64,000 nucleotides of DNA from positions 26,826,270 to 26,890,269 of the forward strand of contig JAJLRJ010000006.1 of the NCBI GenBank assembly GCA_024195265.1. The letters are read 5' to 3'. The first letter of the stretch is position 1. Each line of letters starts with the position of its first letter. Below are positions 37,442 to 54,467 of the stretch, in pieces. A model generated the notes under the pieces. It was not told the DNA's origin. It saw only the letters and a list, made by a program, of their open reading frames with translations, and searched no databases. The position numbers were made by a program, and so were the translations under genes. The DNA is from Dendrophyllia cribrosa. Taxonomy: Eukaryota > Cnidaria > Anthozoa > Scleractinia > Dendrophylliidae.

Positions 37442-37632
37442 AGTAGTATAGGACTTGGCGGTACCAGATCAGTTTTGCAAAACTGATCTGATACCAAGCC
37501 AAGTCTATACTACTGCCAGCTGATGGAACGATCATATAACACAATCAGATAGAAATATTAAATGAAACTATATATTAAAAAAAACAAAGTGCGTTTATTT
37601 CATTGCGTGATACAATTCTCGGAAACACAGGA
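37442..37632 (+). repeat. Polinton left terminal inverted repeat
   Basis: 191 bp matching the reverse complement of 54250-54467 with few substitutions. Relative to the right copy it lacks about 27 bp between two GCGTGA direct repeats. The outer 73 bp (37442-37514) is self-complementary around TTTTGCAAAA. Confidence 0.95.
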
Positions 37633-37682
37633 TGTAATACCCAGAAACAGAGAACGGGGAATCCCCCGCTTACAAGTCTGAA

Positions 37683-37978
37683 CATGTTTTGATAAAAAGG
37701 AAATGAGTCATCACTAATAGTTATTGTTTCAGATCACGAGACGGTCGTGTGATATTTTTAACCAATCAGAGGCTTCACACTTTGATTCACAATTGTGAAC
37801 TTTTTCAGTGAAAAAGTTCACAATTGTGAAGTTGCTTGTGAAGTTAAGATGCCTTACTCACATAACTGAATGATGCATCATCCACCTTCTGATTGGTTGA
37901 AAAAATCATACGACTGACTCATGATCTGAAACAATAGCTATTAATGATGACTCATTTCCTGTTATTAAAACATGTTCG
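37683..37978. mobile_element. MITE-like foldback inside the Polinton left end
   Basis: About 95-bp arms pair (gaacatgtttt ... aaaacatgttc, with caatcagagg / cttctgattgg internally) around a central hairpin TTCACAATTGTGAA. It resembles the host-type MITEs outside the element more than Polinton coding DNA, so it is probably a secondary insertion. Confidence 0.6.
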
Positions 37979-38059
37979 CTATTTTTGTTTTCTGGGAATT
38001 TAGACCCGCACCGCTTATAGCTATTGTTTTAAAAATATAATCTCATATAATAGTATAGA

Positions 38060-38767
38060 ATGAATTGTAATTTGGAAATTCATGATGAATTTGAGAAGAT
38101 GGGAGAGTTGACCTGTCCCTTTTGTGACCAACGATTAGCAGATGTTGGTAGAAATACGGAAATGATGAGTATTGGTGAGTTGACCTGTCCCTTTTGTGAC
38201 CGACGATTAGCAGATGTTGGTAGAAATACGGAAATGATGAGTATTGGTGAGTTGATATGTCCCCTTTATGATATGAAATTATTAGAAGTTGATAGTAGTG
38301 CTAGATTGGTTGAGTTATGTTGTTGTGAACAAGATATAAATAGTATAGATGGTATGAGCGTCTGTCTAAATTGCGGTTCCGTCCATGGTTATGATTATGT
38401 TAAAGAGTACGTTGATTTTTATGAGAATATGTATAGAATAAGGACGAAGAGTGTGTATGTAAGAAAATATCATATCGAAAATATAATCAATAAATATAAT
38501 AAAGAAATTCATTTGAGTTATCAAGACCGTAACAAAATATATAAGATTTTTGGATTAATAAACAACGTGTTACCAGAAGTCAATAAGAACCGGAAACGGA
38601 TGATTAGTGTAACCTATGTTTTGAGAAGATTATTAAAAATTTTAGGATTACCTTATGATAAAATAAAAATAACTTCTTCTAAAAAGACATTAAAATTTTA
38701 TGAACAATGGTGGGATGATGTTTATAAATTAATAAAGAATGATGTCAACAAAATTATTAAAAGGTGA
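38060..38767 (+). CDS. probable VLTF3-like late transcription factor with zinc ribbons
   Basis: 235 residues. The N-terminus holds two exact-style 24-residue repeats (GELTCPFCDQRLADVGRNTE and its copy; 72-bp DNA units at 38105-38176 and 38177-38248) and a third degraded unit that has lost one Cys. A zinc-ribbon half (CCCEQ ... CLNCGS) follows. The C-terminal domain (VYVRKYHIENII ... RKRMISVTYVLRRLLKILGL ... SSKKTLKFYEQWWDDV) has the spacing of the viral late transcription factor 3 family of large DNA viruses. That would make it an element-encoded activator of late genes. The family call rests on pattern memory and was not searched. It is preceded by a TATAATAGTATAGA box at the ATG. Confidence 0.55.
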   Translation: MNCNLEIHDEFEKMGELTCPFCDQRLADVGRNTEMMSIGELTCPFCDRRLADVGRNTEMMSIGELICPLYDMKLLEVDSSARLVELCCCEQDINSIDGMSVCLNCGSVHGYDYVKEYVDFYENMYRIRTKSVYVRKYHIENIINKYNKEIHLSYQDRNKIYKIFGLINNVLPEVNKNRKRMISVTYVLRRLLKILGLPYDKIKITSSKKTLKFYEQWWDDVYKLIKNDVNKIIKR

Positions 38768-38888
38768 CCTGTTGCATGATTCTCAGAAAAATAGGAAGTC
38801 ATACGTCATGCAAAGGGGGTTTTCCCTATGAATGAGTTATTGAATAAAGTTTGTTAGTAAAGTTTATCGTAAAATTTACTATAAAAGT

Positions 38889-39377
38889 TTACTTGGAAGT
38901 GAATTTTTTATCATATTGTTTCTCGAATTTATCGGCAAGAGGACAAATATCGATGATTATTTCGTCTAACTGTCTCATTTCATTGATGAATATATTGTGG
39001 TTGAATTGATTTCCTCTAAGACAAGACCGTAAAAAAACTAATACTTTTTCATATGTCGTATAAGCAAATTCAGACATTTCGATTTTCTTTTTATAATTCT
39101 TGATTTCACTTACTGTTTTTAGCACTAAACCAGCTCCAGAAATAGAAGCTAGTATAGCAGGATTTAATGTGATACTACCAGTTACAGTACCAATAACTAT
39201 TAAGCCTGTTGAAGTTACATTAATAGCTAAATTCAATCTCTTGAAATATTTGAAAGCATTCTTATAGCACCAAAATCGTTTATGATAAAATCGATACAAT
39301 GCTTTGATTTCAGATAATTTTTCTTGGCTGATGTTTTTATCAATATGATTGAAATTGAATATATCTGTTTTAGTCAT
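38889..39377 (-). CDS. two-TM membrane protein of unknown function
   Basis: 162 residues. The N-terminus is a basic aromatic helix (LYRFYHKRFWCYKNAFKYF). A hydrophobic hairpin follows (NVTSTGLIVIGTVTGSITL and AILASISGAGLVLKTV), then a charged helical tail. The layout resembles small 2TM SLATT-like proteins, but this is only an architectural likeness. It converges with the zinc-ribbon gene and is preceded on its own strand by ATATATAATATA at the ATG. No function can be assigned. Confidence 0.6.
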   Translation of the reverse strand: MTKTDIFNFNHIDKNISQEKLSEIKALYRFYHKRFWCYKNAFKYFKRLNLAINVTSTGLIVIGTVTGSITLNPAILASISGAGLVLKTVSEIKNYKKKIEMSEFAYTTYEKVLVFLRSCLRGNQFNHNIFINEMRQLDEIIIDICPLADKFEKQYDKKFTSK

Positions 39378-39397
39378 TATATTATATATTTGGATAA

Positions 39398-39799
39398 TTA
39401 TATTTTAGGATTTGAAAGAAGACAATATAATACACCACTTATTTGGCCCATTATTGGAGATCTTTTTATTTTCTTCGGTATTGAAAGGAAGCAATATGTG
39501 TATCCAGGCCCCTTTTCATAGTCATTGTAAAATCTTCCAAATGCATCATGAAAAATAGCATGTTTAATTAAAAATTGGTATTTGGTATTTAGAGTACAAG
39601 AACCTGGTCCTATTAATCCAATGTCAGAGTGTTTTTCTAATATTTGGTTAAATGATATTGGCTTATTCAAATAGTTAACGTACAAAAATTGATATATTAA
39701 AGCCGATTTTAATATTTCATCTTTAGTATTAGGATGTAGGTTTTTTTGGGTTGTGAAAAATTTATTACAAAAATTAATTGACTGTGCAAGAATTGACAT
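39398..39799 (-). CDS. conserved-looking hypothetical protein
   Basis: 133 residues with a helical N-terminus and a C-terminal block HAIFHDAFGRFYNDYEKGPG followed by YTYC, which looks like a structured motif. No signal peptide or TM segment. It lies 20 bp upstream of the 2TM gene and is preceded by GATATATATAA at the ATG. I do not recognise the family; a link to phospholipase A2 through the HD pair is not supported by the rest of the sequence. Confidence 0.6.
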   Translation of the reverse strand: MSILAQSINFCNKFFTTQKNLHPNTKDEILKSALIYQFLYVNYLNKPISFNQILEKHSDIGLIGPGSCTLNTKYQFLIKHAIFHDAFGRFYNDYEKGPGYTYCFLSIPKKIKRSPIMGQISGVLYCLLSNPKI

Positions 39800-39831
39800 T
39801 TATATATATCAATATATTAGATAATTATATA

Positions 39832-42015
39832 TTAAAACTCTTCAAAAAGTACACTGATATGGCAATTATAAGGTGCATATGTAATATGATCAATTGATAT
39901 TAATTTGATTCGTACAACTGTATCTTCATTGAAATTGATAATTGATGTTGATATATTGAAAGTGTATAAAATTTTATTTGATGTTTTATTCCAATTTTGG
40001 GGTGCAAATGAAGTGTTACCGATTAATATAACCATTTTTTTGTATCCTTCAGGCGGTTTATTATCCCATATAATTAACCATAATTTTACTATTTTCATAT
40101 TAATTAATGCAATAAATGATGATGAACCGTTGAATATGATATCATTAGTGTTCTTATTTTTCATATAATTGCCCAAAAATATGAATTTTTGTTTCTTTAT
40201 AGGTAAACCAATTATGTTTCTACCATTTAAATCAATATCTGTCTCCATTGTCATTTTTCCATTTTCAATTGTATAAATAGAATCATATACATCTGAATCA
40301 ACACTCGAGATATGTCCTTGAACACCATAAACGATTAGATGTGCTTTATTTGTATTTCCTTTTGTTATACTACCATGAAGATCTATCATTATATATTCAG
40401 GAGGAGAAACCTGCCATTTGTGTAAATGAACAATACTTTTCGTATATCCTTCAGTGTTAAATATCTTTGTTGTTTGCTGCTCAATATTGATAACTGTTGA
40501 TACAACACTGACAGTTGTCGAACTAATATAAGCTTTATCTGGAACGAAAAACTCAATCACCATAGTGTACTCACCTTGAGGAAGATTTAGTGCATTTAAA
40601 CCTATCCTTGACGCGAAGTCATTGTCATTGTCTATCGTAAGAGTTATATCATAGGCTTTCTTGTTAATTTTATGCGGCGATCCATCAAAATCAATGATCC
40701 CATTGACAACAATATTACTCTCCGATGAGCTCTGATTAACATCTTCCATCATGTATCTGAAAACGTCTTTTTTAGCTGAGGAAGATATATGTGACTTGTT
40801 TACATAACTCTTATAATCGTCTGTTATTCGTGTGTACATGTTCGAATTAGAATCGTTGAGTTCGGAGTTGAAAAACGAAACATTGACGGCAGCACCATTC
40901 TCATTTGGTTTAGGTGTTGCTAAATTAGTAATTTTATTACTTTGCATATCAAGATCGCTGGAAATCGTTTTGTCTAATTTTTCGTTTAAATGTGTATCAA
41001 CATATGTTTTTGTCGCAGCTTCTCCTCCATATTGCGGGTCTTTAAGATTTGTGATGCTGTGATGATTCATGTTAAGTTGAACCTCCATTGGAAATTCTTC
41101 TTTCCGACTGAGAAACATTCTCCGGTTATCTTCGTGACTTGCAATACTATCGTAGTGAGTCTGATAGTAGCTGAAATCTCGTTGTTTACTATTGATAATA
41201 TTGTATTTATGCTCCAAATCAATGTCCTCTGTTATTTCATATTTCTGTGGAGGGGGATTAGAATGGTAATTTTTTAGTGTTCTCATATTAACAGTTGACG
41301 AATCATTATCTTCATCTGTGACGACATTTATTATTTTCTTATTTTTAGCATCATAATTGCTGCCTTCTAGATTTAAAAAGTGTGTTTTTCCATGATAGAA
41401 AGGGAATGCATCATTGTCTCCAGCTGCTTGTACATTCTCTATAACATGATAATTAGCATCTAAATGGTCATTCAGCACTATTTTTTCATTTTTCATATAT
41501 GCATCTGTAATATTAGCTTTTTTATTATTATAATTTTTAAGAGTTATCATATTAGTTGCACAAAGATCATTGTCTTCATCCGTGTCCAGATTTGTGATTA
41601 ATTTTCTATCCATATTGATTTCTCCAGGTAGAATTAATTTATTTCCTCGCATATCAAGATCCCCCACCATATGAGTTGTTCCATCTAATTTTAAATAATG
41701 CGTGTCTCCATACTCTTTATTAACAGCATCTTTTTCTGAAATTGGTGTTTTTAAATTTCTTATATTATTGTTTTTCATATCAAGATTTGCTGTAACTAAT
41801 GGTAAATGCTTACTAACAAATGTATTTCTAATAAATTTGAAATCAACTACATCATTCAAACCAGTAACTGTTCCTATATTTACTATTTTTTTATTTTGCA
41901 TATCATAATTACCATCATCTGTCAATTTGAAGCCAACGCCTGGCGGGCCTGGTGGTCCTTGTGATGTTGTTGTTGTTGTTGTTGTTGATGGTAGTAATCC
42001 GTTTGAATAACTCAT
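39832..42015 (-). CDS. fibre-like protein with collagen stub and tail-fibre repeats
   Basis: 727 residues from the Met at 42015, chosen because the TATATA box abuts it and an earlier in-frame Met would overlap the ATPase gene. A Thr run and a short collagen-like GPPGPPGVG lie near the N-terminus. About eight repeats of the form 'DLDMxNNKIxNLxxPxxxxDAxxxxY' follow (for example NLDMKNNNIRNLKTPISEKD and DLDMQSNKITNLATPK), the trimeric beta-prism style of phage tail fibres. The C-terminal 300 residues look like beta-sandwich head domains. Inferred role: receptor-binding spike or fibre of the virion. Confidence 0.8.
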   Translation of the reverse strand: MSYSNGLLPSTTTTTTTSQGPPGPPGVGFKLTDDGNYDMQNKKIVNIGTVTGLNDVVDFKFIRNTFVSKHLPLVTANLDMKNNNIRNLKTPISEKDAVNKEYGDTHYLKLDGTTHMVGDLDMRGNKLILPGEINMDRKLITNLDTDEDNDLCATNMITLKNYNNKKANITDAYMKNEKIVLNDHLDANYHVIENVQAAGDNDAFPFYHGKTHFLNLEGSNYDAKNKKIINVVTDEDNDSSTVNMRTLKNYHSNPPPQKYEITEDIDLEHKYNIINSKQRDFSYYQTHYDSIASHEDNRRMFLSRKEEFPMEVQLNMNHHSITNLKDPQYGGEAATKTYVDTHLNEKLDKTISSDLDMQSNKITNLATPKPNENGAAVNVSFFNSELNDSNSNMYTRITDDYKSYVNKSHISSSAKKDVFRYMMEDVNQSSSESNIVVNGIIDFDGSPHKINKKAYDITLTIDNDNDFASRIGLNALNLPQGEYTMVIEFFVPDKAYISSTTVSVVSTVINIEQQTTKIFNTEGYTKSIVHLHKWQVSPPEYIMIDLHGSITKGNTNKAHLIVYGVQGHISSVDSDVYDSIYTIENGKMTMETDIDLNGRNIIGLPIKKQKFIFLGNYMKNKNTNDIIFNGSSSFIALINMKIVKLWLIIWDNKPPEGYKKMVILIGNTSFAPQNWNKTSNKILYTFNISTSIINFNEDTVVRIKLISIDHITYAPYNCHISVLFEEF

Positions 42016-42034
42016 TATATATAATATGAGTATA

Positions 42035-42676
42035 TTATATTTTTTCATTGAAATTCTTGGTTGTGAATTTCCTTGGTTTATCAATATATATGAAGCAATA
42101 TGAATCATTAGTGGCTTTTTCATAGTCAGATTTTTTTATACCAAGCTCTCTACTAATCCTGTTTTGTTCGTTTGGAGAAGGAAATTCAAAAATGCAGTAA
42201 TGTGTAGAGTTAAGACGGATACATTTGTCAGTGTCATAAAACGATTGATTAAGATATATGCAACTGCAATTTTTGTTTCTTGAGTTAGTGTAGTAGTTTC
42301 TTATTTCTGCATCATTTTTACTACCAGTATTAAGATAGTCATCAAAAATAACCAACTTTTGGTTATCACAATTTAATTCGGACAAAGGCAATATTTGATC
42401 ATTACTTGCTTCAATAATTGGGTAACCCACCTCTTCACTGATTGGTTTCAATGTTTCCAGTAAATGTTGATATTTTGATTGTTCCAAGTTTTTAGCATAT
42501 AGATAAATTTTATCGAAATAGAGTAGCCTATAGATCATGTCTAGCAGAACGTTTGTTTTTCCTGACCCAGATGGGCCGCAAATTAGCATCCGGAAGCATC
42601 GGTCAGGCATGAAAGGATATAACTGTTTATAATTTGAAGTTACATCATCATCGGCATCGTAATTTGGTATTATCAT
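42035..42676 (-). CDS. DNA-packaging ATPase (A32/FtsK-HerA type)
   Basis: 213 residues. The Walker A motif GPSGSGKT is at 34-41 and the Walker B motif LVIFDD at 108-113, with a polar NSRNKNCSCIYLNQS segment after it (sensor region). This family pumps genome DNA into icosahedral capsids and is a Polinton hallmark. It is divergent to the PPxY structural gene, sharing the 135-bp intergenic region 42677-42811. It starts at a CATATAATATAA box and appears intact. Confidence 0.93.
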   Translation of the reverse strand: MIIPNYDADDDVTSNYKQLYPFMPDRCFRMLICGPSGSGKTNVLLDMIYRLLYFDKIYLYAKNLEQSKYQHLLETLKPISEEVGYPIIEASNDQILPLSELNCDNQKLVIFDDYLNTGSKNDAEIRNYYTNSRNKNCSCIYLNQSFYDTDKCIRLNSTHYCIFEFPSPNEQNRISRELGIKKSDYEKATNDSYCFIYIDKPRKFTTKNFNEKI

Positions 42677-42811: not shown

Positions 42812-43828
42812 ATGAGTTTACTTAAATGGAAAGAACTTGCAAAGAGTAAATCTCTATTAGGTAATAAGATTAATCTTGTACATGATGCAATCACAAAACA
42901 TAATCTTCGTCATAAGATAAGTCAAGAGTCATTGGCTAAGGTATTCAAACCTGTGACTAGTAAATTAGATGATGTTATCGACAGTAATGTAGATTTAAGG
43001 GTACCCATAAGAAAGAAAAGAGCACCTAAAAAAGCTGATCAAGGTATTGATTATATGCCTGAAGTTGACCCTTTCGAAGACATGCAAGTTGATGATTTAT
43101 TTGGTGATTATGTCCCACCAAATCAAAATAAACAAATTGTACCTAAACCACCTACTTATGAAGAATCTTTACAAGATCTTATGGAAGGAAATAAGAATAT
43201 TTATGTTGATCCTCAGTACTTTGGTGATGAACCTGATGAATTACCACCAGAATATGATGACGACGATGAGATCGATTATGGATTAGATAATGAAGATATA
43301 AGTAATGAGATTTTGAATGATATTGGTATTACGGATTATGAAAATGTGGAAATGAGGTTAAATCAACCAGAAATGACACATAAAAAGACTAAGGCCTATC
43401 TTAATAAGATTATAAATGATGCAAAATCCAAAAGGAGTCAATTAAGTGGTTATAAGTCACATGTTACAAAACAGTTCAAAAGTGGGGCTATATCAGAAGC
43501 TGAGAGACAAATGCGAAACAAAAGAATAGACAATGCAAGAGTTACTTTAAATGAATACATAAAACATTATAATACTAAATTGGAAACAATAAAAGGTTCT
43601 GGAATCCAGAGTCGGGGAAAAAAACAGAGAGGTGGAAATATTATGTTTTTTAATGATGTAAAGCAGCTTTTAAAAAAACTGGAATTGATTATTGGTGAAA
43701 GATTGGCAGGGAATACCAGCATTGAGATGCGAAATATGGGAGTTACTATATTGGACACATTATTGAAAATGTCGAAAATCAATAGGTCACAATATAGTAA
43801 ATTGTATAGTCAATATTTCAAAATATAA
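42812..43828 (+). CDS. structural protein with two PPxY late domains
   Basis: 338 residues. A basic patch (RVPIRKKRAPKK) is followed by an acidic, Pro-rich centre with PPTY at 113-116 (KPPTYEESL) and PPEY at 145-148. PPxY motifs recruit NEDD4-family ubiquitin ligases and are used by adenovirus protein VI and enveloped viruses for intracellular transport or exit. Near residue 270, IKGSG fits the adenain cleavage pattern [MIL]xGx-G, suggesting precursor processing. The C-terminus is helical. It lies just downstream of the divergent promoter and 22 bp upstream of the minor capsid gene. The role is inferred from motifs. Confidence 0.75.
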   Translation: MSLLKWKELAKSKSLLGNKINLVHDAITKHNLRHKISQESLAKVFKPVTSKLDDVIDSNVDLRVPIRKKRAPKKADQGIDYMPEVDPFEDMQVDDLFGDYVPPNQNKQIVPKPPTYEESLQDLMEGNKNIYVDPQYFGDEPDELPPEYDDDDEIDYGLDNEDISNEILNDIGITDYENVEMRLNQPEMTHKKTKAYLNKIINDAKSKRSQLSGYKSHVTKQFKSGAISEAERQMRNKRIDNARVTLNEYIKHYNTKLETIKGSGIQSRGKKQRGGNIMFFNDVKQLLKKLELIIGERLAGNTSIEMRNMGVTILDTLLKMSKINRSQYSKLYSQYFKI

Positions 43829-43850: not shown

Positions 43851-44597
43851 ATGGAACGAGAGATAGTTTTATCATCTTATAGTGTAAAAAATCAAGGGAA
43901 TAATAAACCTGAAGATTTCACAACAAAATTTACTAGACCAATGATATTGGATAGTAATTCTCAATATGTGATCGGCCTTAACCGAATTATCAATATGAGT
44001 TTTACATGGTTTAATGTTAATGCTGGATACAATAATCAATTAATTAAATTTAGCTCTGATAGTGGTTCAACATTTAACAACATCACCTTTCCAGCCGGAG
44101 TATGGAATTATACAGACTTCAATACATATATCAAGGATATAACGAAGACTGGTGATACGTATCCTATCACTCTTGAATTCGATAATACAACATTTAGGGT
44201 TACGATTACATTGACTCAGAATTATCAGCTTGATTTGACGCATTCCAATTTTAATGATCTAATCGGGTTTGATAAGACAGTATTATCTAATGAAACAAAT
44301 ATAGGGCCGAAAGTGCCCAATCTCAGTCAAGACACAGATATCCTGAATATCCATTGTAACCTAATAAACGACAGTCTTGTCGACGGTCAAGATACAGACA
44401 TCATTTATTCCTTCTCGACCAGTGTACTCCAACCTAGTTACTCCTTTACCCTCGAACCACGAAGAGTCACATTCAATCCAGTCAATAAGAATAATATTAG
44501 TAGTATCAGGGTATACATTACTGATGGAAAAAGAAGATTAGTTGACCTGAATGGAGCAGATACATCTTTCTCACTAATTCTGAAAAGTATAGAATAA
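43851..44597 (+). CDS. minor capsid (penton-like) protein
   Basis: 248 residues beginning MEREIVLSSYSVKNQGNNKP. It is beta-rich throughout, with the FPAGVWNYTDFNTYIKDI segment and a C-terminal PSYSFTLEPRRVTFNPVNKN strand region typical of the single-jelly-roll minor capsid protein of Polintons. It would occupy the five-fold vertices. No break seen. A TTATTATATAA box abuts the ATG. Confidence 0.8.
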   Translation: MEREIVLSSYSVKNQGNNKPEDFTTKFTRPMILDSNSQYVIGLNRIINMSFTWFNVNAGYNNQLIKFSSDSGSTFNNITFPAGVWNYTDFNTYIKDITKTGDTYPITLEFDNTTFRVTITLTQNYQLDLTHSNFNDLIGFDKTVLSNETNIGPKVPNLSQDTDILNIHCNLINDSLVDGQDTDIIYSFSTSVLQPSYSFTLEPRRVTFNPVNKNNISSIRVYITDGKRRLVDLNGADTSFSLILKSIE

Positions 44598-44614: not shown

Positions 44615-45034
44615 ATGAAACCGTATGAATTCAGAAGATTTTACCATCCAAAACTTGGTAAATTTGTATACAGACACAAAGGATCGGGAATTATCGTTGA
44701 TAATATTTTCAAACCGTTGAAGAGTGTTGCATCATCTGTTTTCAAGAAATTTGCTAAGCCAATAGCAAAGAAGGCGTTAGAATCGGGGATATCCCATGCA
44801 GGTGAGCGACTGGGTAAGGCGGTATCTCAAAAATCTGGTGATTTGATAATGAAAAGATTGACAAATTTGAGAAAAGGAGCTACAAGACAAACAGCAATTG
44901 TTCCATCCTCACCCATTAAACAGCTGCAGCAACATTATCAGCCAAAACTAGATCAAGAAAGTACTGATATGATACTGAATAGACTCATTTCTGGAGATGG
45001 TTTGAGGAGAAGACGTAGAGTTAGATTTGTATAG
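44615..45034 (+). CDS. basic core/cement-like protein with protease-site motifs
   Basis: 139 residues, strongly basic. The sequence opens YEFRRFYHPKLGKFVYRHKG and continues with an amphipathic helical region (KPIAKKALESGISHAGERLG). It ends with ISGDGLRRRRRVRF: ISGDG fits the adenain [MIL]xGx-G site, leaving an Arg-rich peptide, much as adenovirus core precursors are cut. Inferred role: DNA-condensing or membrane-active internal virion protein. A TATA box abuts the ATG. Confidence 0.65.
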   Translation: MKPYEFRRFYHPKLGKFVYRHKGSGIIVDNIFKPLKSVASSVFKKFAKPIAKKALESGISHAGERLGKAVSQKSGDLIMKRLTNLRKGATRQTAIVPSSPIKQLQQHYQPKLDQESTDMILNRLISGDGLRRRRRVRFV

Positions 45035-45084: not shown

Positions 45085-45834
45085 ATGTCTTTTAGAACAG
45101 ATAATTTTCTACAAAGAAATGAGTTGGTGCGATTCCAACTCGATGATGTAATCAGGTCTCCAGCTAACGGTCAACACCAAACGAAAAATGGTTATAAATT
45201 TACAATTAATGATCGATCGAGTTTCTACGATTGGTACAATGCCTATATTGAAGTCCAATTCCAACTACAGAAATTAGCAGACGGAGCAGGATATGCTGCT
45301 GCTGATCGAATAACGGTAATTAATGGAGGGCATTCCTTAATTGACCACATAATGATTAAATCTGCAGGAAAAATAGTTTATGACACTGACAATCTCCATA
45401 AAGTCACTTTTGTTAAAAACCTGCTAGAGTATTCTGATGATTATAGCAGATCAGTCGCTAAAAACAGTTTCTGGTATTTGGACACGAATGCTACAACAGC
45501 CAACACGAATACAGGATTTGAAGCTCGCAGGTTGCAAACTCAAGCACTTCGAGACAATGGGACTGGTGGTGCTAAAAACATTAATGTGATTATACCATTG
45601 AACAGGTTCTCATTTTTTGAAGAACTTGAAGATAAGATGCTTGTACCAATGCAAATACAATTTAACATTGAGCTACAAAACGATGGTGAACTCATTCACA
45701 TGGCTAATGGAACTGATGCTGGAAGAATTGTTGTTAATAGGTTTTTGCTATGGGTGCCAAAACTAACCCCAAAGGATTCATTGTATGACAATTTCGTTAG
45801 TTCATTTCTTAAAGAAACTCAGTGGAATATTTAA
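45085..45834 (+). pseudogene. major capsid protein, N-terminal part (frame break at 3' end)
   Basis: 249 residues covering the first jelly roll and part of the second of the Polinton double-jelly-roll capsid protein: RNELVRFQLDDVIRSPANGQ, FYDWYNAYIEVQFQL, GGHSLIDHIMIKSAGKIVYD. Capsomers of this trimeric protein form the shell. The frame meets TAA at 45832 although similarity should continue; the continuation is one frame away from about 45822. The break is therefore a small indel near 45822-45834, with no homopolymer there. Confidence 0.88.
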
Positions 45835-46370
45835 GGGAAATGTACGAAGCATCAGCTCCTACACAATCATCAGGATTTTTCCAGATTTCAAGCAGTATTG
45901 ACAATGTCAAACACATTTTTGTTTACTTGAAAAGAACAAACCCGCCTAATGATGCAGTTGAAGAAGACAGTCCTTATCTAATGAACACTTTTAAACTTAA
46001 TGCTGCTGATAATAACTCTTCCCTTTTAAACTGTAGACTAGAATATGGAAATGGAGTCTTTTATCCAGAAACAGAGTATGATACAGAATCAAAAGTGAGA
46101 ATCTTTAACGATTTGATGTCATATACTATGCGGAAAAATGACTATAACAGCGGAACTCAGCTGAACTTAGCAAACTATAGTTCTCTGTATGGGTTGATTT
46201 ACTTTAATCTTACGTATCAAACTGAAAAAATAACAAGAGATCCGAAACAGCTAATCTTTAGGTATAGACTAAGCCAGAATGCAGTTGCAAACTTCAATGT
46301 TCATGCTGTAGTCCTATATGAAGAATCTGTTGTCATTGACAAGGTGGGTAATGAATTGGTTATAGTGTAA
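45822..46370 (+). pseudogene. major capsid protein, C-terminal part
   Basis: 182 residues of the second jelly roll, with the typical end segment (SSLYGLIYFNLTYQTEKITR, FNVHAVVLYEESVVID). It opens without an ATG and overlaps the end of the upstream frame by 13 bp, so it is not an independent gene. Confidence 0.88.
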
Positions 46371-46434: not shown

Positions 46435-46542
46435 ATGACTCAGCTTTTTGAAATCAAAGTAAATTTGTCTGACAATCAAAAGAAGAATCTTAGCAATGCT
46501 TTCAAAAAAAAGGGAAACTATTGTTCTCAGACTATCAAATAA
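46435..46542 (+). CDS. short N-terminal frame of the pX-like structural protein
   Basis: 35 codons starting MTQLFEIKVNLSDNQKKN at a TATATAAGAA box. Its content matches the expected start of the following structural protein. The downstream frame takes over after an A8 run at 46504-46511, so a homopolymer indel probably split one gene. Confidence 0.6.
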   Translation: MTQLFEIKVNLSDNQKKNLSNAFKKKGNYCSQTIK

Positions 46543-47716
46543 ATCTCTTCATGGCAATGACGTTTTATATGTATCATCGATGGTGAAGAAGAGATTGGAG
46601 AAGAATCGTATGATGAATAAGGGTATGAATATCAAACTTGTTAAAAGTAATATCAGAAAACAGGTTGGAGGTAGTCTACTAACTTCTATCTTAAGTATTG
46701 GAAAGACGCTAGCACCAACTATAGGCAAAACCCTTGGGCTATCAGCTCTTGCTGGATTGGCTTCAGAAGGTGCTTCTCAGATTGTGAAATCAATATCTGG
46801 CAAAGGCGTACAGTCGGGTGGTTTTCTCGTACCACAAGACAAAATTAATAAGCTGATAGAATATAAGCATCTTTTATCTGCGAAACAAAAACAGGATATA
46901 TTGAAAGCCCTTCAATCAGGTTCAGGTGTTCATGTGAAACCAACAAAAACACAATCAGGTGGATTTTTAGGCACTCTGTTGGCAAGCATTGGTGTTCCAC
47001 TCCTTCTAAATGCTTTGACTGGTAAAACTGGTAGTGGGGCTCCACGAATGGGAACTAGTAAGAAAAAGGGTATGGGAGCTCCAAGAATTGGTGTATATAG
47101 ACCACCTCCATTTTATGGGAGTTGGCCCGATAATACGATAGGTATGGGGATTAAAAAAAAAACAACCAAAAAAAAAGACAACCAAAAGGGGCGAAGGCTT
47201 GCTATTAGGGAAAAGCAGCCCTTTCAATGGTATTCCTCTTCTCGGAGCAATACTGTAAAACCGAAATTCCACAAAGACATCCCGTTAAGTAATCATGATC
47301 TAATAAAATGGTGCAGATATTTAAACATCCCAATCAGTGATGTTCTGTCAAGGGATGAAAGAGTTCCACATAATCATAGCCAAGCATTATTTATTTACAA
47401 TCTGGAACCTAGTTATATGGCAGGATCTCATTGGGTTACAACTTATGTAAAAGACAACGTGATAAATTATTTTGACAGTTTTGGTATGCCTCCATTTCAA
47501 GAGATCGTAAATCATGCGAAAAGAAGGAATATGACACTGCTTCACCAAAACAACCAAATCCAAAACATAACAACGTCTACATGTGGCTACTTCTGTTTAT
47601 ACTTTCTGAACGAAATGAATAAGGGGAATTCGTATTATAATTTATTGCAAGTATTTGACATATATGATACAATGAAGAATGAGAGATTCCTCGAACATTA
47701 TTTTAGAAATATCTAA
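46496..47716 (+). CDS. structural precursor apparently fused to adenain-type cysteine protease
   Basis: 406 residues. Residues 1-240 are a Gly/Lys-rich, hydrophobic-patch precursor (LLTSILSIGKTLAPTIGKTL) with several protease-like sites (ISGKG, QSGG, GSG). Residues about 250-406 are an adenain-type maturation protease: H312 in AGSHWVTT, D327 in YFDSFG, Q near 354-356 and C363 in TSTCGYFCLYFL. It would cleave capsid precursors. The fusion is probably not natural. Two A-runs (47153-47162, 47168-47176) lie at the joint. Another frame continues the precursor to a plausible hydrophobic C-terminus with stop at 47256-47258. The protease would then start by overlap, without its own TATA box. Confidence 0.8.
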   Translation: MLSKKRETIVLRLSNKSLHGNDVLYVSSMVKKRLEKNRMMNKGMNIKLVKSNIRKQVGGSLLTSILSIGKTLAPTIGKTLGLSALAGLASEGASQIVKSISGKGVQSGGFLVPQDKINKLIEYKHLLSAKQKQDILKALQSGSGVHVKPTKTQSGGFLGTLLASIGVPLLLNALTGKTGSGAPRMGTSKKKGMGAPRIGVYRPPPFYGSWPDNTIGMGIKKKTTKKKDNQKGRRLAIREKQPFQWYSSSRSNTVKPKFHKDIPLSNHDLIKWCRYLNIPISDVLSRDERVPHNHSQALFIYNLEPSYMAGSHWVTTYVKDNVINYFDSFGMPPFQEIVNHAKRRNMTLLHQNNQIQNITTSTCGYFCLYFLNEMNKGNSYYNLLQVFDIYDTMKNERFLEHYFRNI

Positions 47717-47728: not shown

Positions 47729-47890
47729 ATGGTAAAATCATATTGTGTTAGACAGAAGAAAGTCACTGAATGTGTTCCAGGAAGCGAACGATATGTGAAA
47801 ACTAAAAATGGTCGAACTATGTTGAAATGCACTTGCGCTGAATGTGGTATAACAAAAACCAAATTTATAAAACAAAAACAGGGAAACTAA
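47729..47890 (+). CDS. small zinc-ribbon protein, DUF5679-like
   Basis: 53 residues. KTKNGRTMLKCTCAECG and the initial SYCVRQKKVTEC follow the DUF5679 layout, except that the second Cys of the first pair is shifted. It starts right at a TATATATA box. Its 3' end overlaps the next gene in another frame. A frame change near 47868 would make it the N-terminal domain of the phospholipase protein, which lacks a TATA box of its own. Confidence 0.6.
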   Translation: MVKSYCVRQKKVTECVPGSERYVKTKNGRTMLKCTCAECGITKTKFIKQKQGN

Positions 47891-48516
47891 TTGAGCCCTC
47901 ACAAGATGGGGGCTTTTTAAATATAGAAGGTAGTCACAGTCTTGGTGAAATAGCAGCTAAAAGCGCTTTAAAAGGTTTGTATAATTTAGGTAGAATCGGA
48001 GCATCAAAGGCAATTAAATCTGGTTATGCTAAACAAAAAATAAAAGGAATGGCTGATAAATATTTGGATCAAGCCTTAGATAGTTTAACTTCAGATATTA
48101 GTAAGAAACTAGATCCATTGCATAAAGGTAGTGGGATTGATATTCATAAGGCCATTGGGAAGCTTCCGAAACCAAAAGGCGGTTGGACATTACCCGGCCA
48201 TAAATATACTGGCCCATATAATGATTTAAAGAGTCAAGTGAAATATGACCCAACAACTGGCCAAATATTAGAAATATATGACCAACCTACAGGAAGAACT
48301 GATGAAATAGCAATGCAACATGATGTCGATTATTCAGTCTGCAAGGATGATAGGAAATGTAAAAATAAGGCAGACCGAAAAATGGTTCAAGCTTTAGACA
48401 ACGTACCGTATAATGAAAGACAATGGGGGCATTGGTTGGCTAGAAACACGATTGATGTAAAACAAAAACTTGGATTAGGTGTTAAAAGGAAGTCAAAAAA
48501 CGTAAAAAGGAGTTGA
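47842..48516 (+). CDS. virion phospholipase A2 domain protein
   Basis: 224 residues. A Gly-rich helical region (IAAKSALKGLYNLGRIGASK) leads to a parvovirus-VP1-type PLA2 domain. The Ca-binding loop YTGPYN is at 122-127 and the catalytic HD at 160-161, within DEIAMQHDVDYS, with Y164. In parvoviruses this enzyme, exposed from the capsid, hydrolyses endosomal membrane lipid during entry. KGSGI upstream of the domain resembles the other protease-site motifs of this element. The C-terminus is basic. The 4-bp overlap with the integrase and the upstream overlap with the zinc-ribbon frame suggest one transcript. Confidence 0.8.
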   Translation: MWYNKNQIYKTKTGKLIEPSQDGGFLNIEGSHSLGEIAAKSALKGLYNLGRIGASKAIKSGYAKQKIKGMADKYLDQALDSLTSDISKKLDPLHKGSGIDIHKAIGKLPKPKGGWTLPGHKYTGPYNDLKSQVKYDPTTGQILEIYDQPTGRTDEIAMQHDVDYSVCKDDRKCKNKADRKMVQALDNVPYNERQWGHWLARNTIDVKQKLGLGVKRKSKNVKRS

Positions 48517-49457
48517 GTAATGATTGGGCTGAACTCCTTGCAAATGAACTACATAAACCAATCAAACGGAAATTTCAAAAGAGACGTGTTATTGTTAATG
48601 GAATAGATGATATTTGGAGCGCTGACCTTGTAGAAATGCAGAAGTTTTCAAAATGGAATAAAGGATATAGATATTTGTTAAACATCATTGATGTGTTTTC
48701 AAAATTTGCTTGGAGCATTCCCATTAAAAATAAAACCGGTAATACAATTACTGAATCATTTGATGATGTTATTAAAAAGTATAAAAGAAAACCGAAATAT
48801 TTATGGGTAGATCAAGGATCTGAATTCTATAATAAAACTTTCAAAGACTGGCTAAAGAAAAATAATATTGAGATGTATTCTACTTTCAATGAAGGTAAAG
48901 CTGTTGTTATTGAGAGATTTAACAGAACATTAAAATCTAAAATGTGGAAACAATTTACAGCTCAAAATACAACACAATATTTAGACATGTTACCAAAACT
49001 ATTAAATGAATACAACAGTACAAAGCATTCAAGTATTAAAATGAAACCTATTGAAGCATCTATGAAAAAGAATGAAGGAACTGTTTATTTCAATCTATAT
49101 GATACGGAACTATTATCATATAAACCAAAATTTAAAGTTGGTGATAAGGTTAGAATTTCAAAGTATAAACGGAATGTGTTCGACAAGGGTTATACACCAA
49201 ACTGGACTGAAGAAGTGTTTACAGTCGATAAGATACAATACACAAACCCTATTACATATAAGTTAAAGGATCTTAATAATGAATCAATAGAAGGGTCATT
49301 TTATGAACCTGAATTACAATTAGCAAAACAGGATGTATTCAGAATTGGCAAAGTCATTAGGAGGGATTACAAGAAAAAACAAGCTTTGGTATCATGGTCT
49401 GGTTATCCAAAAGAATTTAATTCATGGATACCGTTAAAAGATGTCAAAAATATCTAA
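48513..49457 (+). CDS. RVE integrase with C-terminal chromodomain
   Basis: 314 residues. The retroviral-type DDE core has D38 (WSADLVEMQ), D100 (LWVDQGSEF) and E134 (VVIERFNRTLK), so the spacing is normal. A GDKVRISKYK SH3-like segment follows, then a chromodomain (FRIGKVIRRDYKKKQALVSW ... YPKEFNSWIP) that may bias integration by histone-tail binding. The enzyme makes the 6-bp staggered cut. There is no in-frame ATG before the catalytic core. The frame begins at TTG (48513), overlapping the upstream stop, and this may be a mutated ATG. It carries no TATA box at its start. Confidence 0.93.
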   Translation: MSNDWAELLANELHKPIKRKFQKRRVIVNGIDDIWSADLVEMQKFSKWNKGYRYLLNIIDVFSKFAWSIPIKNKTGNTITESFDDVIKKYKRKPKYLWVDQGSEFYNKTFKDWLKKNNIEMYSTFNEGKAVVIERFNRTLKSKMWKQFTAQNTTQYLDMLPKLLNEYNSTKHSSIKMKPIEASMKKNEGTVYFNLYDTELLSYKPKFKVGDKVRISKYKRNVFDKGYTPNWTEEVFTVDKIQYTNPITYKLKDLNNESIEGSFYEPELQLAKQDVFRIGKVIRRDYKKKQALVSWSGYPKEFNSWIPLKDVKNI

Positions 49458-49471
49458 TGTTTATATATATC

Positions 49472-49780
49472 ATGAGTGGTATTAAGAAATATATTGAAAA
49501 AATAAATGTTCAAATTAATGAATGTGAAGATGAATCAGACAATCTTCGTGATAAAATATACGATAATGAGCGTAGATTGGATATGTTACAATATAAAAAG
49601 AAATTATTGAAACTTTATCATAAAAAAATACATGAAATGGATGAAGATATAACATTGAAACAGTTATTGAATATTATCTGCAATGAGATAGAAAACAATA
49701 AATACGATGAGGAATGTAATGTGTTGAAACAAACAAAAGTTGATAATATAGCTGAATTGAAAACTGAAATGAATATCTGA
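49472..49780 (+). CDS. small coiled-coil protein
   Basis: 102 residues from the Met next to the TTATATATATC box. It is almost entirely charged helix (INVQINECEDESDNLRDKIY ... NERRLDMLQYKKKLLKLY), probably a dimeric coiled coil. No enzyme motif. Function unknown. Confidence 0.65.
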   Translation: MSGIKKYIEKINVQINECEDESDNLRDKIYDNERRLDMLQYKKKLLKLYHKKIHEMDEDITLKQLLNIICNEIENNKYDEECNVLKQTKVDNIAELKTEMNI

Positions 49781-50120: not shown

Positions 50121-50152
50121 AAACTAAGAAATATATAGTTTAATGGATCCAT

Positions 50153-50439: not shown

Positions 50440-50520
50440 CGCAAGGCGATCATAAAAAGATAATCATATATGACCAATCATATATAACTATCTCAAATTA
50501 TTTCAAAAATGATTCCAAAA

Positions 50521-50577
50521 ATAAACGCACTATAAAAGGACTTAAAGAAATATTATATAATTATATATATATAGATA
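50521..50577 (+). promoter_or_regulatory. polB promoter candidate
   Basis: ATAAACGCACTATAAAAGG 57 bp before the polymerase ATG, then a TATATATATATAGATA stretch abutting it. Confidence 0.55.
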
Positions 50578-53559
50578 ATGGAAAAATCAGACTTAACAAA
50601 ATTGAGTAAGTCTCAACTAATCCAAATGCTATTAAAGCAACAGAAGAAAAAACCTGAAATTATTGTGGTAGATGATACCAAACCAGTTCCAACACCAAGG
50701 ACTGTCAAACCAATCCCAGCACCTCGTAAGAGTGTAAATCAAATGGTTCAAGATTATGAAAACAATATAATTTTTCCACCAGTGCCAGCACCAAGAACTA
50801 AAAAACCAGTCCCATTACCAAGGACTAAGATAGAGCAAACAGATAAAGCTCTGAAAGGCTATACAAAGTCTTTTGAAATAAGTATCAAAAATAACAAAGA
50901 CCCACTAGTGCAACTACAAAACACAAGAGAGGCTATAGCATATCATATTATAAGTACACTAAAATCCATGAAAGGACTGAAATTTGTTGAAACGCTTAAG
51001 GTAACATTCACAAAAATATCAGATGGAGAAATAGTGTATAAGACCGCATATTTCAACAGTGTAGCTCAAACAATTATAAATAATCTAGAAATTACTAAAT
51101 CACTACAATTGTCAAAACAGCAAATCTTAAATAAAATAGCTCAATGGATATCTGAAGGGTCTGGTTGGACTGTTAAATCAGTTGAAAACCATTATCTTAA
51201 TGTTGTAAAATATCAACCAATGAGAGGCTCTTCATATATTAAACTACCCCAAGAACTCAGAAACAGTGCGAAGGGATTGATCAACATGAAAAATGAGGAT
51301 AATGAATGCTATAGGTGGTGTCACATTAGACATTTGAATCCTCAAGACAAATACCCACAGAGAATTAAAAAAGTTGACAAGCAATTCATTAAAAATTTAG
51401 ATTATTCGGGGATTGAATTCCCAGTAACCACCAAACAGTACAACAAGATTGAAAAACAAAATAATATCAACATAAATGTTTTCGGTTATGAAGATCAACA
51501 ACCATTTCCTATTTACATATCCCAAGAAAAATTTGAAGATCAAATGCATTTATTATTGATAACAGAAGGCGAAAACAAACATTATGTATTAATAAAAGAC
51601 TTCAATAAATTTATGTACAATCAAACAAAACATGAACATAGAAAGCATTTTTGTATGTATTGTTTACAATGTTTCAGTAGTGAAAGAGTATTATTAAATC
51701 ATAAAGAAAATTGCATCATCATAAATGGAAAACAAGCCATAAAAATGCCGTCAAAGGATAATAACATATTGAAATTCAACAACTTTCATAAGCAGTTGCC
51801 TGTACCATTTGTCATCTATGCAGATTTTGAAGCTATTGTAGAAAAAATAGAAGGATGCAGGCCAAACAATGACAAATCATATACAGAAGCCTATCAAATA
51901 TACAGAGGTGAAAAAGCCGTATACAAATTTATGGAAGCTATGCTAGAAGAAGTTAAGTATTGTAAAAATATTATGAAAAAGGAATTTAACAAACCATTAA
52001 AAATGACAAAAGATGATGAAGAGGAATTTCAAAAAGCTAAAAAATGTCATATTTGTAATAAAAAATATACTGATAAGGACATTCGAGTTCGAGACCATTG
52101 CCATATTATAGGCAAATACAGAGGCTCTGCTCATCAAGATTGCAACCTGAAACTCAAAATAAAACCAGAAGAAATAAAAATACCTGTTATATTTCACAAT
52201 CTCCGTGGGTATGACAGTCATTTTATAATGCAAGAGATTGGTGAAATAGTCAAGAAGCATACATATACAAATAAGAAAGGTGAAAAGTGTCAAATGAATA
52301 TCAATGCCATACCTAACAACATGGAGAAGTATATGGCTTTCATGTTGGGTAATCATCTTACCTTTATTGATAGTTTCCAATTTATGAGCTCAAGTTTGGA
52401 AAAACTAGTGAGCAATCTACCAAAAAAATTGTTGAAATACACCTCTCAAAAATTCAAAGGTGAAAAACTTGATTTAATGTCACAAAAAGGAGTATACCCT
52501 TACGACTACATGGACAGTTATAATAAATTCGATGAAAAGCTACCACCGAAAGAAGAATTTTACAGCATATTAAATGATGAACATATATCAGACGAAGACT
52601 ATAAACATGCCCAAAATGTGTGGAATACATTCTCTCTTAAAAATATGGGTGAGTACCATGACTTATACCTTAAATCTGACATCATTCTGTTAGCTGATGT
52701 ATTCGAAAACTTCAGGAAAACATGCCTAGAATACTATAAACTTGATCCATGTCATTATTTCACATCTCCCGGTTTGTCATGGGATGCTATGCTAAAAATG
52801 ACTGACATTAAATTAGAGCTTATGGTCGATATTGATATGTTTCAATTTATTGAAAAGGGCATGCGTGGCGGAATCAGCTATATAGCCAACCGCTATGGAA
52901 AAGCAAACAATAAATACATGAAAACATATGATGAGAAGGCGCCCTCAAAGTATATCATGTATCTTGACGCCAATAATCTGTATGGCTGGGCAATGAGTCA
53001 ATACCTTCCAACAGGCGGATTCAGATGGATGACACAAAAACAGATCGATAAGATAGACCTAGCCAAGTATAAAGAAGATAGTGAGAAGGGTTTGATACTG
53101 GAAGTAGATTTAGAGTATCCTGAAGGGTTACACAATCTTCATAATGACTACCCGCTAGGACCGGAAAAGGTTAAAGTAACTGAGAGTATGTTGTCTGGGT
53201 ATTGTAAAAACATCGCGAAGAAATATAAAATATCAACTGGTTTAGTTCATAAATTGATACCAACCTTGAAGAACAAAGAAAAATACGTGCTCCATTATAG
53301 GAACCTTCAATTATACACTGATCTTGGTTTGAAAATAACTAAAGTCCATCGAGTACTAGAGTTTGATCAATCTCCTTGGTTAAAACAGTATATCGACTTT
53401 AATACAGAAAAAAGGAAGAACGCAAAAAATGCTTTTGAAAAAGACTTCTTTAAACTTATGAATAACTCTGTATTTGGTAAAACGATGGAAAATATTAGAA
53501 AGCGAGTAGATGTAAGACTAATCACCGATGAAAAAAAAACTATTGAAATATGCCAGTAA
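50578..53559 (+). pseudogene. polB: protein-primed DNA polymerase B, main part
   Basis: 993 residues. The N-terminus has four PxPxPR-like SH3-ligand motifs (PVPTPRTVKPIPAPRKS, PPVPAPRTKKPVPLPR). The Polinton N-terminal region follows, then a 3'-5' exonuclease (YADFEAI; NLRGYDSHF; YLKSDIILLAD). An endonuclease-VII-like zinc HNH insert (CHICNKKY ... RDHCHIIGKYRG) lies between the exonuclease motifs. Polymerase motif A is YLDANNLYGWAMSQY and motif B is FFKLMNNSVFGKTMEN. It replicates the linear element from a protein primer at the termini. The frame breaks at an A9 run (53531-53539), so motif C lies in the next frame. Confidence 0.95.
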
Positions 53560-54235
53560 ACCAACGTATGTTAGCAGTAAGATCTTCAACGAAAATCTAG
53601 TAGCTGTGCATAAGATCAAAGAAACACTTACCCTAAACAGGCCGGCTTATGTGGGTATGTGCATCTTAGATTTAAGCAAGACGTTAATGTACGATTTCCA
53701 TTATAACTACATTAAAAAGAAATATGAAGACAAAGCCAAGTTACTCTTCACAGACACAGACAGCTTGACCTATGAAATCGAAGCTGAAGATGTATACCAA
53801 GACTTTTGGAATGATAAAAATAAATTCGATAACAGCGACTACCCTGAAAGCTCCCCGTATTTTGATAAGACAAATAAAAAAGTTATTGGTAAATTCAAAG
53901 ATAAAGCCGCAGGAGTTCCTATTTGTGAATTTGTTGGGTTGCGATCCAAAATGTATAGTTACATAAAAGATAACCAAAAAGGAGGAAAGACAGCCAAGGG
54001 AATCAAAAAGAATATTATCAAAAATAATATCAAGCATCAAGATTATAAAGAAACGTTATTAGGAAATAAACAGATGCATCACACTATGAAAACAATAAGA
54101 AGTCAAAACCATAAATTAGGAAGTTATGAAATCAATAAAGTATCACTCAGCTGTTTCGATGACAAAAGGTATATATCAGATGATGGCATAAATTCATATG
54201 CTTATGGACATTATAAAATAACTTTCCTTAATTAA
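53528..54235 (+). pseudogene. polB: DNA polymerase B, C-terminal part
   Basis: 235 residues in another frame from the A9 run. It carries motif C (LLFTDTDSLTYEI) and the C-terminal thumb (FKDKAAGVPICEFVGLRSKM). Normal order with the upstream part, so a single-base change in the A-run explains the split. The Met at its start is in the run and is not a genuine start. Confidence 0.95.
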
Positions 54236-54249
54236 ATCCTGTGTAGACT

Positions 54250-54467
54250 TCCTATGTTTCCGAGAATTGTGTCACGCAAAGGATTCTATTATGCTGGATC
54301 ACGCAATGTAATAAACGCACTTTGTTTTTTTTAATATATAGTTTCATTTAATATTTCTATCTGATTGTGTTATATGATTGTTCCATCAGCTGGCAGTAGT
54401 ATAGACTTGGCTTGGTATCAGATCAGTTTTGCAAAACTGATCTGGTACCGCCAAGTCCTATACTACT
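54250..54467 (-). repeat. Polinton right terminal inverted repeat
   Basis: 218 bp, inverse of 37442-37632 plus about 27 bp. The outer 73 bp (54395-54467) folds as a hairpin. It contains ATAAACGCAC at 54311-54320, the motif seen upstream of polB. Confidence 0.95.

What the first reader, a model, noticed from the sequence alone, without database searches (positions are those of the whole stretch)
37442..54467. Complete animal Polinton with an unusually full virus-like gene set
Exact 6-bp TACCCC duplication, matching termini and at least fourteen genes are visible. They include capsid, penton-like, protease, packaging ATPase, PLA2, fibre-like, PPxY and integrase-chromodomain proteins. The set implies that the element can form, or recently descended from something that formed, virions in its host lineage.
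Basis: partly seen in the sequence, partly recalled or inferred. Interest (0 to 1): 0.9.

Follow-up and report, generated by a model that had tools for sequence, protein, structure and literature searches.

The report
Coral Polinton with a poxvirus-type gene
A 17-kb virus-like element sits with both ends intact, but with two broken genes, in what is probably a stony-coral chromosome; it belongs to a large, partly recent family that carries a gene resembling a late transcription factor of giant viruses and poxviruses, and its tips fold into a conserved hairpin.

Summary
The observation largely holds. A 17,026-bp element (37442-54467) has 173-nt inverted ends (98%) and an exact TACCCC duplication. 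In the same genome 14 of 14 sibling copies with both ends found (of 19 examined) have their own exact 6-bp duplication. It is a Polinton/adintovirus-type provirus with about 14 genes, complete at its ends but not intact: the capsid-candidate and polymerase frames are each split, while many siblings keep them open. Three further features: (1) the first gene is VLTF3-like (Pfam match 22.2 bits, under the 25-bit cut-off, but 19 of 29 aligned relatives match at E<=1e-3) and recurs upstream of the capsid candidate, with one to three zinc modules; (2) the outermost 73 nt of each end is a hairpin, found in 38 termini, with three compensated base pairs; (3) 309 such termini exist genome-wide, the nearest siblings 0.1-0.5% different. 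Virion formation is supported only indirectly. Capsid identity was confirmed by no profile or fold. Verdict: a real Polinton, new variant of a known kind.

The parts
37436..37441 (.). left copy of the 6-bp target site duplication TACCCC
   Evidence: 14 of 14 siblings with both ends found have own 6-bp duplications
54468..54473 (.). right copy of the target site duplication
37442..37614 (+). left terminal inverted repeat, 173 nt
   Evidence: 98% complementary; 3 differences of 173
54295..54467 (-). right terminal inverted repeat
37442..37514 (+). terminal 73-nt hairpin, AGTAGT...ACTACT
   Evidence: z -11.3
54395..54467 (-). terminal 73-nt hairpin, right end
37688..37970 (.). subterminal inverted repeat, 83-nt arms with a nested 35-nt inverted repeat; function unknown
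   Evidence: (I2, I5)
38060..38767 (+). VLTF3-like protein, 235 aa; tandem zinc modules 38099-38314
38889..39377 (-). 162-aa protein, very weak SLATT likeness (E 0.069, under cut-off)
39398..39799 (-). 133-aa protein, unknown
39832..42123 (-). 763-aa fibre-like protein: collagen-like start, phage-tail-fibre-type repeats
42035..42676 (-). A32/FtsK-type packaging ATPase
   Evidence: (Pox_A32 7.6e-11)
42812..43828 (+). 338-aa protein with two PPxY motifs
   Evidence: PPTY, PPEY seen in the translation
43851..44597 (+). penton candidate, by position only
   Evidence: position rule from PMC4028283 (passages); no meaningful hit
44615..45034 (+). 139-aa basic protein, core/minor capsid candidate (inference)
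45085..45834 (+). major capsid candidate, first piece (frame breaks here; 139 of 150 listed loci are open over 428-432 aa)
45840..46370 (+). major capsid candidate, second piece, other frame
46496..47716 (+). adenain/Ulp1-like cysteine protease candidate, C-terminal part
   Evidence: Peptidase_C5 E 0.046, under cut-off; no PDB match
47842..48516 (+). phospholipase A2
   Evidence: PF08398 2.7e-9
48486..49457 (+). RVE integrase with C-terminal chromodomain; no in-frame ATG before the catalytic core
49424..49780 (+). 118-aa protein, unknown
50578..53559 (+). family B polymerase of Polinton type, first piece, with an Endonuclease VII-like insert (E 5.8e-5, 23.4 bits, just under its 23.6 cut-off)
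53528..54235 (+). PolB, C-terminal piece, other frame (same frame as the first piece in 12 of 15 sibling ends carrying it)

Best explanation
The locus is one recent integration of a Polinton (adintovirus-type) provirus in what is most likely a stony-coral genome. Shown: defined ends, 6-bp target duplication, gene set, many sibling insertions, VLTF3-like gene as a recurrent cargo, conserved terminal hairpin. Inferred mechanism: the integrase joins linear DNA ending AGTAGT/ACTACT into 6-bp-staggered target cuts; the protein-primed polymerase starts strand-displacement synthesis at the ends, where the repeated AGT could allow adenovirus-style sliding back and the 73-nt hairpin serves as a recognition or end-protection structure; the VLTF3-like zinc-ribbon protein directs late transcription of the morphogenesis block (ATPase, penton, capsid, protease, PLA2, fibre candidates); particles spread the element between cells, which keeps the capsid gene under purifying selection. 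This copy itself cannot make full-length capsid candidate or polymerase by simple translation, so it is a defective member of an otherwise recently active family.
For: Ends and duplication. Gene calls. Family size: 309 outer-arm matches (up to 1 mismatch), 0 in the backward control; of the 100 listed, 86 form 43 convergent pairs and 14 are single; 37 pairs are under 20 kb, median 17,356 bp. Youth: the seven nearest of 19 siblings differ at 3-6 of 1,310-1,326 nt at the left; three differ at 1 of 868 nt at the right. VLTF3: 77 homologues, 40 of them with a precomputed PF04947 label; 286 by profile; PF04947 matched by 19 of 29 at E<=1e-3 and, among ten that I took from the labelled ones, by 10 of 10 at or above the gathering score; open frame in 40 of 40 loci read; dN/dS 0.11-0.54 in the 34 of 36 class-representative pairs that have a value. 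Linkage: 57 of 150 listed capsid-candidate loci have a listed VLTF3-like gene within 14 kb (1,000 random placements: mean 1.07, maximum 6); in 54 of the 57 pairs the strand is the same and the capsid candidate lies 6.1-9.9 kb downstream. Hairpin: 38 termini, each 73 nt, found with motifs that allowed 65-95 nt and 56-126 nt; three compensated pairs, 98.2% of cells paired against 19-39% when slid. Capsid candidate pN/pS 0.085 over 20 copies.
Against: No profile, PDB or structure evidence that 45085-46370 is a double-jelly-roll capsid (a fold job on natural homologues was not accepted). The window's own VLTF3-like protein is under Pfam's cut-off (22.2 of 25 bits); 10 of the 29 aligned members do not match at E<=1e-3, and the ten were taken from proteins already labelled PF04947. 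Structural matches of the VLTF3-like model are weak (best 4.0e-3; none at 1e-3). The 20 capsid-candidate genes came from the 150 best by protein score, so pN is biased low. Within VLTF3 classes pN/pS is 0.60-0.87, i.e. near neutral. Only 57 of 150 capsid-candidate loci are linked to a listed VLTF3 (both lists capped). For the hairpin, 114 of 500 shuffles reach three both-side pairs, though none the covariation score. No IMG/VR relatives. Hairpin function is not tested.
Confidence: 0.85

Rival explanations
1. An ordinary decayed Maverick transposon fossil: the genes are relics, the VLTF3-like frame is an incidental capture and the family no longer moves.
For: Two frame breaks and an unclear integrase start in this copy; within-class VLTF3 pN/pS near neutral; other siblings are older, about 2% different at the left and up to 16% at the right; Maverick sequence makes up 5.2% and 6.7% of two coral genomes in print (PMC12005156, passages).
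Against: Nearest siblings differ by 0.1-0.5%; 139 of 150 listed capsid-candidate loci are open over 428-432 aa (my count, a list of the best scores); 14 of 14 exact duplications; VLTF3-like frame open in 40 of 40 and dN/dS below 1 between classes.
Confidence: 0.1
2. The VLTF3-like gene is only a generic zinc-ribbon protein whose C-terminal helices resemble VLTF3 by chance; there is no link to nucleocytoviruses.
For: Window protein below cut-off; 10 of 29 members without a match at 1e-3; structure matches not significant at 1e-3; zinc-ribbon look-alikes also appear.
Against: The Pfam matches fall on the C-terminal VLTF3 region, not on the zinc ribbon, best 2.4e-8; 40 of 77 homologues carry a precomputed PF04947 label; the second structural match is a named VLTF3-like protein (E 0.65).
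Confidence: 0.15
3. The terminal hairpin is not a replication structure but a doubled integrase site (outer end plus inverted inner copy), or a by-product of snap-back copying.
For: Both hairpin ends carry the element-end motif AGTAGT/ACTACT; arms can be homogenised by copying, which would also yield compensated pairs.
Against: The same asymmetry and orientation are kept in the recovered termini, and the length stays 73 nt while the flanking TIR sequence is replaced (types a, b, c).
Confidence: 0.4

Closest known systems
Polintons/Mavericks, adintoviruses (vertebrate Mavericks, PMC8097293; Stylophora coral adintovirus named in PMC11071308; passages only)
   Same: RVE integrase with chromodomain, family B polymerase, A32/FtsK ATPase, (AGT)2//(ACT)2 ends, 6-bp duplication, length within the 15-20 kb given in PMC8715426 (passages)
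   Different: VLTF3-like gene with variable zinc modules; 73-nt terminal hairpin; two broken genes in this copy. PMC11071296 (passages) mentions a zinc-finger-regulator-like gene ('Ziftr') in some adintoviruses; whether it is the same gene was not tested
Adintovirus-like regions of Amoebidium (PMC11244446)
   Same: PolB closest to adintoviruses, capsid genes and a VLTF3 gene together (passages)
   Different: complete ones about 30 kb, unicellular holozoan, Dam methyltransferase; no zinc-module or hairpin description in the passages seen
Nucleocytoviricota / mriyaviruses (PMC11253617, passages)
   Same: VLTF3 family; A32-type ATPase
   Different: that paper states VLTF2/VLTF3 homologues were not detectable outside the phylum; here it is on a 17-kb integrating Polinton
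Tetraselmis viridis virus S1, a cultured Polinton-like virus (so called in PMC11071308)
   Same: its uncharacterised protein M4QPM5 is the best structural match of the VLTF3-like model (E 4.0e-3, probability 1.00)
   Different: algal virus; function of that protein not known; match weak
Streptomyces TP-capped palindromic telomeres (PMC4513846, start of abstract in the search listing)
   Same: palindromic ends in a terminal-protein linear replicon
   Different: bacterial chromosomes and plasmids; packed palindromes

Membership tests
Polinton/Maverick (adintovirus-type) | terminal inverted repeats with (AGT)2 or (AG)3 ends and 6-bp target duplication | tested here: met
   motif from PMC8097293 passages
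Polinton/Maverick (adintovirus-type) | RVE integrase, with chromodomain | tested here: met
   rve 47.4 bits, cut-off 32.6; chromo 22.4 bits, under its cut-off 25.1; foamy virus integrase 1.5e-10; chromodomain-type chains about 0.002
Polinton/Maverick (adintovirus-type) | family B polymerase of the protein-primed type | tested here: met
   DNA_pol_B_2 3.9e-17 on the first piece; protein priming itself not testable here
Polinton/Maverick (adintovirus-type) | A32/FtsK packaging ATPase | tested here: met
   42.4 bits against cut-off 22.8
[quoted passage not shown]
   428-aa family, 1402 homologue clusters, but no profile or PDB match; fold job not accepted
Polinton/Maverick (adintovirus-type) | penton (single jelly roll) near the capsid gene | tested here: inconclusive
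   one gene upstream of the capsid candidate; no meaningful profile or PDB match
Polinton/Maverick (adintovirus-type) | adenain-type protease | tested here: inconclusive
   Peptidase_C5 E 0.046; no PDB match
VLTF3 (PF04947) | match to the curated Pfam model | tested here: inconclusive
   window protein 22.2 bits, under cut-off 25; 19 of 29 relatives at E<=1e-3; 10 of 10 at or above cut-off, but all ten were taken from proteins already labelled PF04947
VLTF3 (PF04947) | VLTF3 fold | tested here: inconclusive
   C-terminal domain model pLDDT about 90, whole model 68.2; Edafosvirus VLTF3-like protein is second hit at E 0.65
VLTF3 (PF04947) | late-gene transcription activity | not testable with these tools
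   no expression data
Nucleocytoviricota | core genes such as D5 helicase and own RNA polymerase | tested here: not met
   no such Pfam match among the 16 element proteins scanned; 17-kb integrating element
Parvovirus-type hairpin telomere | flip/flop inversion of terminal hairpins | tested here: not met
   one orientation in the 38 termini recovered and in the 43 convergent pairs

The most novel reading that the evidence does not exclude
VLTF3, taken as a signature of nucleocytoviruses, is an old gene of the Polinton/PLV lineage: cnidarian Polintons keep a working late-transcription factor with fast-changing zinc modules (two apparently independent module expansions in one genome), and replicate through palindromic, terminal-protein hairpin ends. 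If so, the late-transcription switch predates giant viruses and Polintons run their own early/late programme.
Probability: 0.35. Interest if true: 0.8.

Novelty: new variant of a known kind. Interest (0 to 1): 0.6.

Why it matters
It puts a presumed giant-virus signature gene on a small integrating animal virus in many recent copies, so the question whether nucleocytoviruses inherited their late transcription from Polinton-like ancestors becomes testable by phylogeny and expression. The covarying 73-nt terminal hairpin gives a concrete handle on how Polinton ends are replicated or recognised.

Tried and rejected
Parvovirus-like flip/flop: rejected, one orientation only. EndoVII-like insert in PolB as hairpin resolvase: kept only as a thought, since polinton PolBs are reported to carry diverse homing-endonuclease inserts (PMC11071308, passages). 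SLATT effector label for 38889-39377: not accepted (E 0.069). Relatives in IMG/VR by VLTF3-like protein or alignment, capsid candidate or alignment, and PolB: none. PDB by sequence for the VLTF3-like, penton, capsid-candidate and protease proteins: nothing significant. VLTF3 tree with giant viruses: not done, no curated giant-virus VLTF3 sequences were at hand. Fibre diversity among copies, genome-wide PF04947 count, TIR search by DNA and empty-site search: not answered by the server. NCBIfam: nothing beyond transposase-type integrase and one match far below its cut-off.
Full report
What was checked. The element spans 37442-54467 and is bounded by 173-nt inverted repeats (98%, 3 of 173 differences) and TACCCC on both sides. 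Its G+C is 28-35% in 2-kb windows against 35-48% in the flanks. The window is C19:26826270-26890269 of a 627-Mb, 22-contig assembly; 14 large contigs hold about 625 Mb of it (lengths). Fourteen chromosomes fit stony corals (recalled), and the only named capsid-candidate relative among the 120 listed is an uncharacterised Montipora capricornis protein (P0148, 82% identity). The host is therefore probably a stony coral, not proven.

Siblings. Copies L010-L028, selected by VLTF3-like score, were examined at both ends. In 14 of 19 both ends were found, lengths 15.8-18.9 kb, and 14 of 14 have exact, mutually different 6-bp duplications; in 5 no right end lay in the fetched 5 kb. Genome-wide the outer-arm pattern (up to 1 mismatch) occurs 309 times, none in the backward control. 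Of the 100 places listed, 86 form 43 convergent pairs and 14 are single; 37 pairs lie under 20 kb, median 17,356 bp. At the left end the window copy differs from seven siblings at 3-6 of 1,310-1,326 nt and from the other twelve by 1.6-2.3%; at the right end it differs from three at 1 of 868 nt and from others by up to 16%; it has 2 private substitutions in 1,279 columns against seven close siblings. So the window's subfamily is young within an older family. That Mavericks fill 5.2% and 6.7% of two coral genomes is already in print (PMC12005156, passages), so abundance as such is not new.

Gene set. See parts. Profile support is good for ATPase, PLA2, integrase core and PolB, fair for the fibre-like protein, weak for the protease, absent for penton and capsid candidates. 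The capsid label rests on size, conservation (1,402 homologue clusters, best 120 listed), and place downstream of the penton candidate and upstream of the protease candidate. The window copy's capsid-candidate frame is 250 aa, while 139 of the 150 listed loci are open over 428-432 aa (my count of the table, which lists the best scores only). The two PolB pieces lie in the same frame in 12 of the 15 sibling right ends that carry the second piece (stops inside alignments were not counted). Copies without these breaks therefore exist; this one has them. An assembly error cannot be excluded for either break. PMC10120064 (passages) found that cnidarian capsid genes fall outside the main Maverick-Polinton cluster, so distance from reference capsids is expected.

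VLTF3-like gene. 38060-38767 encodes zinc-binding modules followed by a C-terminal domain. The window protein matches PF04947 at 1.3e-4, 22.2 bits, under the 25-bit cut-off. Relatives do better: 40 of 77 homologues carry a precomputed PF04947 label; 19 of 29 aligned members match at E<=1e-3, best 2.4e-8. Ten of ten scanned one by one reach the cut-off, but I had taken them from labelled ones, so this shows their scores and not a rate. Profile search gave 286 relatives, 120 listed. In this genome 185 matches were found, 150 listed. Of 150 listed VLTF3 and 150 listed capsid-candidate loci, 56 and 57 lie within 14 kb of one another, in 57 pairs; random placement gave a mean of 1.07 and a maximum of 6 linked capsid-candidate loci; 54 pairs are same-strand with the capsid candidate 6.1-9.9 kb downstream, 3 are not. 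Both lists are capped. In 40 of 40 loci read the frame is open and ends in a stop. The N-terminal module occurs once, twice or (with a degenerate last copy) three times, and L077/L078 show a different, apparently independent triplication; in L075 one cysteine-knuckle motif is altered. Between nine class representatives dN/dS is 0.11-0.54 (34 of 36 pairs with a value); within classes pN/pS is 0.60-0.87. This fits constraint during replication and drift after insertion. The AlphaFold model is confident only in the C-terminal helices (pLDDT about 90; overall 68.2). Its best viral match is an uncharacterised protein of the Polinton-like virus TvV-S1 (E 4.0e-3), then an Edafosvirus VLTF3-like protein (E 0.65) and, at rank 11, a Tupanvirus putative transcription factor (E 3.4); none reaches 1e-3. 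PDB matches were not significant; the first rows are chain M of RNA polymerase II initiation complexes (TFIIB by recall), E 1.5 and above.

Prior knowledge. PMC11253617 (passages) says VLTF2 and VLTF3 homologues were not detectable outside Nucleocytoviricota. PMC11244446 (passages) reports VLTF3 in adintovirus-like regions of Amoebidium, so the association is not wholly new. PMC11071296 (passages) mentions zinc-finger-regulator-like genes in some adintoviruses, which could be related. PMC5294986 (passages) lists a lone VLTF3 among metazoan genes in the anemone Exaiptasia, which may be a Polinton gene (my inference). My searches for VLTF3 or late transcription factor with Polinton, adintovirus, coral or cnidarian terms (listings, only some of the papers opened) showed no report of it in an animal Polinton. 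Most subscription papers are not in that library, and the adintovirus founding paper was not held.

Terminal hairpin. The outermost 73 nt of each end folds into a hairpin (-26 kcal/mol as DNA, z -11.3, 0 of 200 shuffles; two other types alike) whose own two ends carry the element-end motif. It was recovered in 38 termini: the window's 2, 19 of 19 sibling left ends, 14 of 19 sibling right ends, and 3 of 8 left-end stretches of other VLTF3 classes. All are 73 nt, found by motifs that required the AGTAGT/ACTACT ends but allowed other lengths. Of the other five stretches, two (L092, L094) stop short of a terminus that one search lists; three (L089, L093, L095) showed none in the fetched bases. Three TIR types differ outside the hairpin. 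Inside, three pairs change on both sides (columns 7/67, 8/66, 13/62), 98.2% of cells pair, and slid controls pair 19-39%; among shuffles 114 of 500 reach three both-side pairs, none the covariation score (11 termini, 7 distinct). Elements with different TIR types at their two ends exist (L017, L010), which suggests recombination between copies. No Polinton hairpin appeared in the listings or in the passages read of PMC4061559 and PMC6431247; the other listed papers were not opened for this.

Selection on the capsid candidate. Over the first 248 codons pN/pS is 0.026 in the ten best hits, 0.085 in ten others from the list and 0.085 over all 20. All come from the 150 best protein scores, so the ratio is biased low. 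Still, pS of 0.12-0.18 with so few replacements suggests that copies which spread had a functional product.

Conclusion. A genuine Polinton/adintovirus-type provirus in a partly recent, probably coral family; this copy is end-complete and gene-broken. The new points are the VLTF3-like gene with variable zinc modules on an animal Polinton and the covarying terminal hairpin.

Noticed in passing
window 3573-7815 (-): Gypsy-like retroelement: reverse transcriptase, RNase H and integrase in one long frame; the adjoining frame 6595-7815 has no Pfam match and looks gag-like by eye.
   Followed up: partly
window 23015-24239 (+): PIF/Harbinger-like DDE transposase pieces.
   Followed up: partly
window 56712-57277: 123-bp tandem repeat, 4.7 copies, 97% matches; four of the TACCCC matches lie in it.
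   Followed up: no
window 37262-37441: An open frame with an ATG near 37268 runs up to and into the left end of the element, so the insertion may interrupt a coding or repeat-derived frame.
   Followed up: no
L077, L078 (G000 C4 and C12): Apparently independent triplication of a larger zinc module in the VLTF3-like gene, 274 aa, in two loci.
   Followed up: partly
L010-L028: Two main distances between terminus and VLTF3-like gene (about 618 and 870 nt) among copies with near-identical VLTF3-like genes, with different subterminal sequence types.
   Followed up: partly
P0102, P0109: N-terminal zinc region gives weak matches, under cut-off, to DUF678 (PF05077; E 0.0058 and 0.0022); a poxvirus family by recall.
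   Followed up: no
window 42035-42123: Fibre-like and ATPase frames overlap by 89 nt on the minus strand.
   Followed up: no
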